From assembly GCA_951813615.1 (NCBI GenBank), contig OX638377.1, positions 6,049,739 to 6,113,738 of the forward strand: a DNA stretch of 64,000 nucleotides. The letters run 5' to 3'. A program made the translations under genes and the position numbers. Source of the stretch: an uncultured Latescibacterota bacterium (lineage in GTDB: Bacteria > Latescibacterota > UBA2968 > UBA8231). The notes below the pieces were generated by a model. It was not told the origin of the DNA and did not search any database. It saw only the letters and a program-made list of their open reading frames with translations. Position 1 is the first letter of the stretch, and each line of letters starts with the position of its first letter. Below are positions 1 to 4,889 of this stretch, piece by piece.

Positions 1-52
1 ACTGCAGCAACATGCGGATGCGGGCGCTGAGGACGGACAGATAGGGCCGCAT
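1..52 (-). CDS. ABC-2 type permease, N-terminal fragment (runs off the window)
   Basis: Only 17 codons are present, reading MRPYLSVLSARIRMLLQ from an ATG at 52-50. That ATG shares one base with the TGA of the upstream ABC ATPase (TGATG), so the two are translationally coupled. The basic start followed by an amphipathic segment is typical of ABC-2 family permeases of the DUF990 / ABC2_membrane_6 type that pair with such ATPases. The identification rests mainly on the coupling to the ATPase; the rest of the gene is outside the window. Confidence 0.6.
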   Translation of the reverse strand, partial: MRPYLSVLSARIRMLLQ

Positions 53-1093: not shown

Positions 1094-1696
1094 CTAGTCG
1101 GGAGCGGTACCGGATTTTTCCCAGGGTCGGATAAAGGATTCAGGCTCGACGCCCAAGGCCTCTGCCACGCGGTTGATATAGTTGAAAAAGCCGATGATTT
1201 GGACGGCGTCGTGGATGCCGCGGTCGTCAAAGCCGTACTGACGCAATTGGTCGATGTCCTCAGCGGTTGAGGCCTGCGGTCGCTGGGTCAGTTTTTCGGC
1301 AAAGGCGCATAGGGCACGGTCGGCTGGCGACAGATCGGCCTTGCGCCAGTCCGTGGACAATTGATGTACCAGTTGATCGGCCGGGGTTTCTTCTGCAACG
1401 GCAAAATCGCGAGCGACCTCAGCCCGGAGGTCGTGGGCATGGGCGCGTATTCAGTACACGCAGTGGTTCGCGGCTGAAACGACCACGGCCAGCATTTCGC
1501 GCTGACTCCGGCTCAGGGGCGAGGGGCCGTGCATGATGGCCCCGTAAAAATCCAGTGAGGTCTTCATGGCCCGGGGGTTGAGGCTCATAATGGAGACAAT
1601 GCCCCAAATGCGCCCGGCCCGAGCGAGGGCGGCTTCGTACTGCTTTTTGAGCAGGCCGGTGGCCCGCTTGAGGGGAACGATGTCTATATAGGGCAT
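1094..1696 (-). CDS. AhpD-like / peroxidase-related protein, candidate selenoprotein (in-frame TGA at 1453-1451)
   Basis: Read through one TGA, the frame gives a 200-residue alkylhydroperoxidase D-like protein. The redox motif has the form C79-V-Y-TGA82-I-R-A-H86, so the TGA stands exactly where the family has the second Cys of CxxCxxxH; the preceding REMLAVVVSAANH segment matches the family. Downstream residues (for example RALCAFAEKLTQRP) continue the same domain in the same frame, which argues against decay. A perfect hairpin follows the TGA at SECIS distance (separate entry). The start at 1696 has a good ribosome-binding site (GAGGTG, 8 nt). AhpD-type proteins are CxxC peroxidases or thiol oxidoreductases. 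An automatic caller would split this into two short ORFs. No sel genes lie in the window, so Sec-decoding capacity is untested. Confidence 0.82.
1414..1433 (-). promoter_or_regulatory. bacterial SECIS-like stem-loop for the TGA at 1453
   Basis: On the transcribed strand, 17 nt after the UGA, the sequence CGACCTC-CGGGCT-GAGGTCG forms a perfect 7-bp stem with a 6-nt apical loop. The loop begins 24 nt after the UGA and has G at its second position. This fits the published bacterial SECIS description: loop 16-37 nt from UGA, upper stem of 4-16 bp, a G among the first two loop bases. It lies inside the coding region, as bacterial SECIS elements do. Confidence 0.72.
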
Positions 1697-1848
1697 TTGC
1701 TAATCACCTCTGCAATGGTGGCTGCCGACGGTAAAATTTGTGACATTGTTGCGAGTTTTTAGTTTGCAACCGAAGAGTACCACCGCGTCGAAAAAGGGAC
1801 GCAACGCCCCCTAGCGCAACAACGCGCTGTATAGAAGGAGCCGTTTCC

Positions 1849-2795: not shown

Positions 2796-4889
2796 TTACT
2801 CTCGGCCACCATAGCGGTTTAATAGCTCGGCTGTCTCAGTAGCATTGTGTTCTGTCGCAATGTGTAGTGGTGTCCGGCCATCGTCGCTCTCAGCGTTGAC
2901 GTTAGCTCCCTGCTTAAGCAGCAGCTCGGCCGTCGCAGCAGCATCCGTCTCTGCCGCATCGTGCAGCGGCGTCCGGCCCTTGTCGTTTTTGGCGTTTATC
3001 TCAGCCCCCTGCGTCAGTAAGAGTTGGACTATTTCGGTTGCGTTGTTCCCCGCCGCCCAGTGTAGCGGTGTCGATCCCTTGTCGTTTTTGGCGTTTATCT
3101 CCGCTCCTTGCGCGATCAACAATTGGGCGGTTTCGATTGCATTTTCGCACGCTACATTGTGCAGTGGCGTATTGCCAGATTGGTCCTTTTCGTTGACGTT
3201 GACTCCCTGTGTCAACAAGACTTCGGTCGTTTTAGCCTCATTGCCCATCGCCGCCCAGTGTAGCGGTGTCCGGCCCAATGTGTCCTTGGCGCAAATCTCG
3301 GCTCCTTGAGTTATTAACAGTTGGGCTGTTTCGGTCGCATTTTTCCACGTCGCATAATGCAGCGGTGTTGCGCTCAGGTCGTTTTTGGCGTTTATCTTGG
3401 CTCCTTGCGTCAGTAAGAGTTGGGCTATTTCGGTTGCGTTGTTCCTCGCCGCTCGGTGCAGTGGTGTCTCGCCATATCCGTCTTTTTCGTTGATGTTGGC
3501 TCCCTGTGTCAGCAAGACTTTGGCCGTTTCAGCCGTATTTTTCCACGCCGCCCAGTGTAGCGGTGTCCGGCCCAATGTGTCCTTGGCGCAAATCTCGGCT
3601 TCTTGAGTTAGTAAGAGTTGGGCCGTTTCAGCCGCGTTGTTCCACGCCGCATGGTGCAGCGGTGTCTCCTCCTCGCTGTTCTTGGTGTTGACTTCGGCTC
3701 CTTGGGTTAGTAAGAGTTGGGCCGTTTCAGCCGCGTTGTTCCACGCCGCAGAATGCAGCGGTGTCTCCTCCTCGCTGTTCTTGGTGTTGACTTCGGCTCC
3801 TTGGGTTAGTAAGAGTTGGGCCGTTTCAGCCGCGTTGTTCCACGCCGCATAGTGTAGTGGTGTCGATCCCTTATCGTTTTTGGCGTTTATCTCCGCTCCT
3901 TGCGCGATCAACAATTGGGCGGTTTCGTCGGCATTGTTCCATGCCGCATAGTGCAGCGGCATGTCGCCATCTTGGTCCTTTTCGTTGACGTTGGCTCCCC
4001 GTATTAGCAAAATCTCGGCCGTTTCAACGGCGTTGTTCATCGCCGCATAGTGCAACGGCGTCTCGCCAGATTCGCCCTTTTCGTTGATGTTGGCTCCCTG
4101 TGTCAGCAACAGTTTGGCCATCTCAGCCGTATTGTTCCCCGCCGCCCAGTGTAGCGGCGTCTGGCCCAATGTGTCTTTGGCGCAAATCTCGGCTCCTTGC
4201 GTCAGCAACAGGTTGGCCGTTTTGGTTGCATTTTTTGCTGCTGCCCAGTGCAGTGGTGTCGCTTCCTCGCTGTTTTTGGTGTTGACGTTAGCCCCCCATG
4301 TTATTAACAGTTGGGCCGTTTCAGCCGCGTTGTGTGCTGCCGCATCGTGTAGCGGTGTCGATCCCTTGTCGGCTTTGGCGTAGATGTCGGCTCCTTGCGT
4401 CAGTAAGAGTTGGGCTGTTTCGGTTGCGTTGTTCCTCGCCGCCCGGTGCAACGGTGTCTCGCCATACTTATTCTTTTCGTTGATGTTGGCTCCCTGTGTC
4501 AGCAACAGGTTGGCCATCTCAGCCGTATTGTTCCACGCCGCCCAGTGTAGTGGCGTCAGGCCCAATGTGTCCTTGGCACAAATCTCGGCTCCTTGCGTCA
4601 GCAACAGGTTGGCCGTTTTGGTTGCATTTTTTGCTGCTGCCCAGTGCAGTGGTGTCGCTTCCTCGCTGTTTTTGGCGTTGACTTCGGCTCCTTGGGTTAG
4701 TAACAGTTGGGCTGTTTCAGTCGCATTTTTTGCTGCTGCCCAGTGCAGTGGTGTCGCCTCCTCGCTGTTCTTGGTGCTGACGTCTTGGATATTGGCGAAC
4801 ACAAGGAAGCCAATGACCAAGAGCACCACTGCGCCCAAGACCTTGGCAAATCGCCGGACTTTGGTCTTTTTTGGCGGTCCGTTGCTCAT
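2796..4889 (-). CDS. Membrane-anchored protein with 20 ankyrin repeats
   Basis: 697 residues. A basic N-terminus is followed by one hydrophobic segment (about residues 15-32), consistent with a signal anchor. From about residue 45 to the end there are 20 ankyrin units of exactly 33 residues with the consensus TPLHWAAxNNAxETAQLLLTQG. The last unit is cut short. Because the anchor precedes the array, the repeats should face the periplasm or outside if the N-terminus is cytoplasmic. The repeats are close to identical in DNA as well as protein, with a 99-bp period, so the array is recent or homogenised. Ankyrin arrays bind proteins; in host-associated bacteria they can contact host targets, but nothing here proves that. 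Confidence 0.92.
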   Translation of the reverse strand: MSNGPPKKTKVRRFAKVLGAVVLLVIGFLVFANIQDVSTKNSEEATPLHWAAAKNATETAQLLLTQGAEVNAKNSEEATPLHWAAAKNATKTANLLLTQGAEICAKDTLGLTPLHWAAWNNTAEMANLLLTQGANINEKNKYGETPLHRAARNNATETAQLLLTQGADIYAKADKGSTPLHDAAAHNAAETAQLLITWGANVNTKNSEEATPLHWAAAKNATKTANLLLTQGAEICAKDTLGQTPLHWAAGNNTAEMAKLLLTQGANINEKGESGETPLHYAAMNNAVETAEILLIRGANVNEKDQDGDMPLHYAAWNNADETAQLLIAQGAEINAKNDKGSTPLHYAAWNNAAETAQLLLTQGAEVNTKNSEEETPLHSAAWNNAAETAQLLLTQGAEVNTKNSEEETPLHHAAWNNAAETAQLLLTQEAEICAKDTLGRTPLHWAAWKNTAETAKVLLTQGANINEKDGYGETPLHRAARNNATEIAQLLLTQGAKINAKNDLSATPLHYATWKNATETAQLLITQGAEICAKDTLGRTPLHWAAMGNEAKTTEVLLTQGVNVNEKDQSGNTPLHNVACENAIETAQLLIAQGAEINAKNDKGSTPLHWAAGNNATEIVQLLLTQGAEINAKNDKGRTPLHDAAETDAAATAELLLKQGANVNAESDDGRTPLHIATEHNATETAELLNRYGGRE
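2900..4790. repeat. 99-bp tandem repeat array encoding ankyrin units
   Basis: About 19 in-register copies of a 99-bp unit within the ankyrin gene. Several neighbouring units are nearly identical at DNA level, for example those around 3670-3870. A longer block (NSEE / ATPLHWAAAKNATKTANLLLTQ / ICAKDTLG) occurs twice, at about 4200-4300 and 4600-4700. The region is prone to slippage, recombination and short-read mis-assembly, so the copy number should be treated as provisional. Confidence 0.9.

What the first reader, a model, noticed from the sequence alone, without database searches (positions are those of the whole stretch)
1094..1696. AhpD-like selenoprotein hidden as two short ORFs
The TGA at 1453-1451 lies exactly at the second Cys of the CxxCxxxH motif (C-V-Y-TGA-I-R-A-H), the frame stays open on both sides with family-like sequence, and a perfect 7-bp hairpin with a G in the first two loop positions starts 17 nt downstream. 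These are the standard features of a bacterial selenoprotein gene. AhpD-like selenoproteins have been reported in marine metagenomes (from memory), so the class is known, but this gene would be called a pair of truncated ORFs by normal pipelines.
Basis: partly seen in the sequence, partly recalled or inferred. Interest (0 to 1): 0.85.

Follow-up and report, generated by a model that had tools for sequence, protein, structure and literature searches.

The report
Selenocysteine-containing AhpD-like redox enzyme
A bacterial gene that looks broken by a stop codon almost certainly reads that stop as selenocysteine in the active site of a peroxidase-like enzyme; this is a new example of a selenoprotein family already known from sea water, found here in a little-studied phylum.

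Summary
On the minus strand, 1696-1094 is one 200-codon frame interrupted only by TGA at 1453-1451, at the second Cys of C79-V-Y-U82-I-R-A-H86. The protein passes the TIGR01926 cut-off. The same chromosome has selA, selB, selD (itself with a Sec codon) and tRNA-Sec (UCA). TGA stands at this column in 46 of 50 non-redundant genes (the window's own included); the other 4 have Cys. Both halves are under purifying selection. The hairpin 17 nt downstream is conserved at synonymous sites: stem codons nearly frozen, loop codons free. TGA is an ordinary stop elsewhere in the window. The class is not new: a 2026 review lists 'AhpD-like protein, TIGR01926, CxxU', first reported from the Sargasso Sea in 2005. 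Two side results go further: the hairpin sits in two registers in different clades, and one Cys-encoding relative keeps the hairpin of its Sec sister, as expected after a Sec-to-Cys change. Function (selenol/thiol peroxidase or disulfide reductase with a Glu-Cys-Tyr-Sec-His site) is inferred from homology; nothing biochemical was tested.

The parts
1094..1696 (-). AhpD-like (TIGR01926) selenoprotein gene, 200 codons plus TAG, Sec at codon 82
   Evidence: TGA at the column in 46 of 50 non-redundant genes, own included
1451..1453 (-). in-frame TGA read as selenocysteine (U82)
   Evidence: aligned with TGA in 45 and Cys in 4 non-redundant relatives
1414..1433 (-). SECIS-like hairpin, 7 bp, loop CGGGCT, loop begins at nt 25 after the TGA
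   Evidence: -10.2 kcal/mol alone
1439..1498 (-). codons 67-86, the active-site stretch E67 ... C79-V-Y81-U82-I-R-A-H86
   Evidence: E67, C79, Y81, position 82 and H86 invariant in 26 of 26 aligned proteins (position 82 is TGA read as a residue); same spacing as the proton-relay residues of PA0269
1705..1710 (-). possible ribosome-binding site GAGGTG, 8 nt before the ATG
   Evidence: sequence printed; judged by eye

Best explanation
A genuine bacterial selenoprotein of the AhpD-like, peroxidase-related family (TIGR01926). SelB with Sec-tRNA(Sec) reads the UGA at codon 82, guided by the hairpin just downstream, giving a 200-residue, mostly helical protein. Its active site has the CxxC of AhpD-like proteins changed to C79-x-Y81-U82, with E67 and H86. 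Most likely Sec82, activated by a Glu-water-His relay, reduces hydroperoxides (or disulfides) and then forms a selenenylsulfide with Cys79, which a thiol reductant resets. Shown here: the gene, the decoding genes, the conservation of TGA, of both halves and of the hairpin, and family membership. Inferred: that Sec is incorporated, that the product is a peroxidase, which of the two residues attacks first, and what the reductant is.
For: TIGR01926 146.3 bits, cut-off 81.8. selA, selB, selD, tRNA-Sec in the same chromosome; SelD itself reads CGG-U-ASK. TGA in 46 of 50 non-redundant genes, Cys in 4. dN/dS below 0.5 on both sides of the TGA in the 12 of 13 pairs in which both halves could be computed; in the thirteenth dS of the second half was saturated. 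Codons among 32 genes of at least 57% identity (own included): D89 GAC 31, L90 CTC 32, E93 GAG 32, V94 GTC 29, while loop codons R91 and A92 vary. Six stem pairs (+19..24 with +31..36) formed in 33 of 33 genes of this register. Of 60 genomes (own included), the 13 with the TGA gene all have selA over cut-off; 45 of the 60 do. Model pLDDT 92.6, with peroxidase-related structures 2prr, 6k40, 2oyo, 2pfx, 3c1l at Z 24.6-25.2. In 6k40, 2oyo and 3c1l the column is Cys. Relay residues match those of PA0269 (Glu36, Cys48, Tyr50, Cys51, His55; passages of PMC3141380).
Against: No protein or selenium evidence. The isolated 43-nt RNA folds otherwise; the hairpin is the best fold of the window gene when the first 8 nt after the UGA are left out, but not of every relative treated the same way (L053, L060 and L071 fold otherwise). 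The hairpin starts later than in more distant TGA relatives, and L074 fits neither register. Three of the four Cys genes are remote (L039, L041) or only a 32-residue match (L086). PA0269 showed only weak peroxidase activity (PMC3141380), and I saw no assay of a TIGR01926 protein in the passages I read.
Confidence: 0.95

Rival explanations
1. A pseudogene or sequencing error: TGA is a nonsense mutation or an artefact of TGC/TGT.
For: A single base separates TGA from TGC/TGT; one same-genus one-contig chromosome (G006) keeps only a 32-residue scrap of the gene, beside the phosphoesterase gene, so loss does happen.
Against: Same TGA in 45 other non-redundant genes, whose records name several phyla; both halves under purifying selection; conserved hairpin; Sec genes present.
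Confidence: 0.01
2. TGA is read as Trp or Cys by a changed genetic code.
For: The frame is open on both sides.
Against: 15 of 38 long non-overlapping ORFs in the window end in TGA; the genome has a full Sec system with tRNA-Sec, anticodon tca; the column is Cys, not Trp, in the genes without TGA.
Confidence: 0.01
3. The protein is a selenoprotein but not mainly a peroxidase: for example a disulfide reductase, or a reductive dehalogenase like Bmp8, which would suit hosts rich in brominated compounds.
For: Debrominase Bmp8 (6ohi) shares the fold (Z 19.1, 17% identity). Iodothyronine deiodinase, a Sec enzyme, shows that Sec suits dehalogenation (recalled). Several of the closest MAGs look sponge-derived from their isolate prefixes (my inference; a sponge MAG set with 44 Latescibacterota is described in PMC8163846, passages).
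Against: Peroxidase-related structures match better (Z 24.6-25.2, 26-33% identity). Relatives also occur in records filed under Acidobacteriota, Zixiibacteriota and others, and no record title names a host. No paper with both 'Bmp8' and 'debrominase' is in the library, so its active site was not compared.
Confidence: 0.2
4. Selenium-dependent switch: the short 81-residue product is also made and has its own role when selenium is scarce.
For: Termination at a Sec UGA is partly possible (established knowledge of Sec decoding).
Against: The short product lacks Sec, H86 and more than half of the chain; nothing here shows selection on it by itself.
Confidence: 0.02

Closest known systems
AhpD-like selenoprotein family (COG2128 / TIGR01926, CxxU; Sargasso Sea 2005; GOS 'AhpD-like 1')
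   Same: Same family model, same CxxU motif, bacterial SECIS downstream
   Different: Host is a Latescibacterota-like chromosome; the hairpin loop starts at +25, whereas distant TGA relatives found here have it at about +17/+18. The Sargasso and GOS sequences themselves were not compared
NF041238 AhpD_rel_CFYUT selenoprotein (Sargasso 'hypothetical protein 1')
   Same: AhpD-like core, CxxU; 63.4 bits (naming)
   Different: Below its cut-off of 175 bits; matches only 215-337 of 357 positions
Cys-type peroxidase-related proteins with structures 6k40, 2oyo, 3c1l, 2pfx, 2prr
   Same: Fold over 177-183 residues, Z 24.6-25.2; same E-C-x-Y-C-H site in the printed alignments of 6k40, 2oyo and 3c1l
   Different: Cys where this protein has Sec
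AhpD of Mycobacterium tuberculosis and PA0269
   Same: Same order and spacing of relay residues
   Different: Distant: TIGR00777 20.2 bits, cut-off 191.95; 1knc Z 11.4, 2o4d Z 17.5
Sestrin N-terminal domain
   Same: PF04636 30.1 bits, cut-off 29.4; Z up to 14.5
   Different: Animal stress regulator; only the AhpD-like part is shared

Membership tests
bacterial selenoprotein gene | in-frame TGA with family-like sequence on both sides | tested here: met
   TIGR01926 match spans residues 2-186 across U82
bacterial selenoprotein gene | Cys (or TGA) at the column in homologues | tested here: met
   46 TGA (own included) and 4 Cys of 50 non-redundant genes; Cys in 6k40, 2oyo, 3c1l
bacterial selenoprotein gene | selA, selB, selC, selD in the genome | tested here: met
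bacterial selenoprotein gene | bSECIS model: 3-9 nt loop, 4-16 bp stem, G in first two loop positions, loop 16-37 nt after UGA, MFE <= -7.5 (PMC13188914, passages) | tested here: met
   loop 6 nt, stem 7 bp, G at loop position 2, 24 nt between UGA and loop, -10.2 kcal/mol; bSECISearch itself was not run, and the 43 nt from the UGA alone prefer another fold
bacterial selenoprotein gene | selenium in the product | not testable with these tools
   needs 75Se or mass spectrometry
TIGR01926 peroxidase-related | curated cut-off 81.8 bits | tested here: met
   146.3 bits
NF041238 AhpD_rel_CFYUT | curated cut-off 175 bits | tested here: not met
   63.4 bits
AhpD in the strict sense (TIGR00777) | curated cut-off 191.95 bits | tested here: not met
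   20.2 bits
AhpD-like active site | Glu, Cys, Tyr/His, Cys, His relay residues at the PA0269 spacing | tested here: met
   E67, C79, Y81, U82, H86, with Sec for the second Cys
AhpD-like active site | peroxidase or adaptor activity | not testable with these tools
   no assay

The most novel reading that the evidence does not exclude
In the lineages sampled here Sec is the usual state of this enzyme, the SECIS hairpin has moved between two registers (loop at about +17 and at +25), and at least one lineage (L034, genome G025, which still has selA) has changed Sec to Cys while keeping the SECIS hairpin intact. That would be a rare documented bacterial Sec-to-Cys reversal outside FdhA and SelD.
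Probability: 0.5. Interest if true: 0.5.

Novelty: new member of a known kind. Interest (0 to 1): 0.35.

Why it matters
It corrects an apparent pair of truncated ORFs to a whole selenoenzyme and adds an uncultured, probably host-associated lineage to the users of this family. The two hairpin registers and the Cys gene with a kept hairpin give a small natural experiment on how bacterial SECIS elements move and how Sec is lost; a 2026 review calls Sec-to-Cys changes in bacteria rare (PMC13188914, passages).

Tried and rejected
Pseudogene, sequencing error and changed code were considered and rejected. Gene neighbourhood (21 loci plus the window, ORFs of 100 aa or more, blastp at 1e-15): the phosphoesterase upstream recurs in 4 of 4 same-genus loci and the ABC transporter downstream in 2 of 4, neither in the other 17, so context gave no functional hint. 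Phages: no tblastn match. Rfam at gathering scores found nothing in the window. The tree is poorly resolved at depth, with long branches (L036, L037, L039, L041, L086 longest); I use only the L034/L035 pairing (96/82), and the tool warns that long branches meet next to it (L041). Rows dropped before the 46-of-50 count: eight contigs fetched twice (L025-L032, judged by equal contig length with L042-L049) and five loci not reaching the column (L038, L040, L083-L085). The 13 rows of the early hairpin register and the 33 of the late one were sorted after seeing the hairpins; L074 fits neither and was in neither table. L037 has a further upstream in-frame TGA that I did not explain. The scan of genome contigs starts from a Sec query and reaches mainly close relatives, so its Sec:Cys ratio is not that of the whole family: GOS had 299 Sec and 902 Cys forms of 'AhpD-like 1'. 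Sec gene presence was checked in relatives for selA only. Papers: PMC1088965, PMC2398784, PMC13188914, PMC9312934, PMC3141380 and PMC8163846 were read as found passages only; the others were seen in search listings. Searches for this family or its host in print; the three papers listed and the four were not opened, so I do not claim that selenoproteins of Latescibacterota are unreported. The search for fossil SECIS in Cys homologues listed three papers; only PMC13188914 was looked into.

Full report
What is there. On the minus strand the frame from ATG 1696 to TAG 1094 holds 200 codons with a single TGA at codon 82. The conceptual protein matches TIGR01926, peroxidase-related enzyme, with 146.3 bits (cut-off 81.8), and Pfam CMD with 47.9 bits (cut-off 23); it stays below the cut-offs of NF041238 and TIGR00777. 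The window lies in a 6.27 Mb one-contig chromosome; the loci nearest to its gene in the named genome collection (88-91% identity) are MAGs titled Candidatus Latescibacterota, Gemmatimonadota or Gemmatimonadetes.

Decoding machinery. The chromosome has selB (346.6 bits), selA (569.3), selD (375.5) and tRNA-Sec (70 bits), all over cut-off; ARAGORN names the tRNA tRNA-SeC with anticodon tca. SelD itself has an in-frame TGA, CGG-U-ASK. selA over cut-off is in 45 of 60 genomes (own included); the 13 with the TGA form of our gene are all among them. G013 (86% complete), whose distant homologue has Cys, has no selA over cut-off; but G025 has a Cys form and selA, and G046 has a TGA and a remote Cys form.

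Conservation of the TGA. One scan of genome contigs gave 45 loci, and 60 genomes gave 18 matches in 16 genomes. Of these 63 loci, 58 cover the column: 54 TGA, 4 Cys. Without the eight contigs fetched twice it is 46 TGA (own included) and 4 Cys; of the four, L039 and L041 are remote (31% and 28% identity) and L086 is a 32-residue match. With the family model TIGR01926 over the same 60 genomes, 14 are over cut-off: 13 with a TGA inside and one (G025) without. Pairwise dN/dS lies between 0.05 and 0.47 on both sides of the TGA where it could be computed; in one of 13 pairs dS of the second half was saturated. TGA ends 15 of 38 long non-overlapping ORFs of the window, so it is an ordinary stop here.

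Hairpin. In 32 genes of at least 57% identity (own included) the stem codons D89, L90, E93 and V94 are almost frozen (GAC 31, CTC 32, GAG 32, GTC 29 of 32) while loop codons vary; the mean synonymous entropy ratio of codons 89-94 is 0.29 against 0.81 for 79 other codons, and none of 100,000 random sets is as low. Six pairs are formed in 33 of 33 genes of this register. Twelve more distant TGA genes, and the Cys gene L034, carry the hairpin earlier, at +11 to +27: five of the six pairs hold in 13 of 13 and the outermost in 12 of 13, with changes on both sides at +14/+24 (C-G, G-C) and +16/+22 (G-C, C-G). These rows were sorted into registers after the hairpins had been seen; L074 fits neither. 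A loose hairpin score of 6 or more is reached in 40 of 46 genes but at only 8.1% of 5,474 control positions, and 2.8% of control positions reach the window gene's score; the score was designed after the hairpin had been seen, and neighbouring control positions overlap. Against this, the 43 nt from the UGA fold alone into another structure (-15.1 kcal/mol, z -1.72, 13 of 200 shuffles as good). The hairpin alone is -10.2 kcal/mol and is the window gene's best fold once the first 8 nt are left out, though not in every relative (L053, L060, L071 differ); that the nucleotides next to the UGA are held by the ribosome is established knowledge, not tested here. The limits of the published bSECIS model are met by the hairpin.

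A Cys gene with a kept hairpin. L034 (genome G025, which has selA) has TGC at the column and pairs in the tree with the TGA gene L035 (96/82; 74% identical over 145 residues). In the hairpin all 6 codons are identical; elsewhere 20 of 48 same-residue codons are (15 of 29 and 5 of 19). The same 20-mer lies at the same place in a second TGA gene on an Acidobacteria contig (L072, minus strand), so it looks like the element of that subfamily and not a local accident. The simplest reading is a Sec-to-Cys change with the hairpin not yet decayed. A Cys-to-Sec gain in the sister is less likely, since the hairpin would have preceded its use, though the review seen holds Cys-to-Sec to be the commoner direction in bacteria and names FdhA and SelD as the main documented reversals. 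It is one gene in one MAG, and a base error there was not excluded.

Function. The model (pLDDT 92.6) matches peroxidase-related structures at Z 24.6-25.2. Position 82 lies in an invariant set E67, C79, Y81, 82, H86 (26 of 26 aligned proteins, all TGA forms), which is the relay of PA0269 with the same spacing. That makes a peroxidase or disulfide reductase most likely; the fold is also shared with the debrominase Bmp8 (Z 19.1) and sestrin (Z up to 14.5). The order of events at C79 and U82 and the reductant are inferred or unknown.

Standing. The family is already catalogued as a selenoprotein family: 27 CxxU AhpD-like sequences in 2005, 299 'AhpD-like 1' selenoproteins beside 902 Cys forms in GOS, and TIGR01926 CxxU in a 2026 review. 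This gene is a new member. Loss happens too: the one-contig same-genus chromosome G006 keeps a 32-residue scrap, by eye next to the phosphoesterase gene.

Noticed in passing
L034, about 1754-1785 (-); L035: A Cys (TGC) homologue keeps a perfect SECIS-type hairpin identical to that of its TGA sister L035: probable Sec-to-Cys change with fossil SECIS.
   Followed up: partly
L072, minus strand around 4044-4075: A second TGA-containing AhpD-like gene lies within about 1 kb of the first on the same Acidobacteria contig, on the opposite strand, with the same 20-nt hairpin as L034/L035.
   Followed up: partly
L038 about 1500-1600 (G006) / L085: A 32-residue scrap of the gene remains, by eye beside the phosphoesterase gene, in a one-contig same-genus chromosome that still has selA: gene loss.
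   Followed up: partly
G000:C1:6238533-6239456 (L021): selD of the same chromosome is itself a selenoprotein gene (CGG-TGA-ASK).
   Followed up: yes
window 2796-4889 (-): 697-residue protein made largely of ankyrin repeats. Eukaryote-like repeats are reported as frequent in sponge-associated Latescibacterota (PMC8163846, passages); that ankyrins count among them is recalled.
   Followed up: no
L037, before 35 open codons upstream of the Sec-like TGA: A further in-frame TGA upstream in a distant relative (G046); start site or second recoding not resolved.
   Followed up: no
G022:C124:1367-1501 (L132): A second, partial relative of the L034/L035 type with a TGA inside (51% identity over 45 residues).
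   Followed up: no
G000:C1:1343552-1343803 (L087): A second CMD-family protein of the genome, over cut-off and without an internal stop.
   Followed up: no
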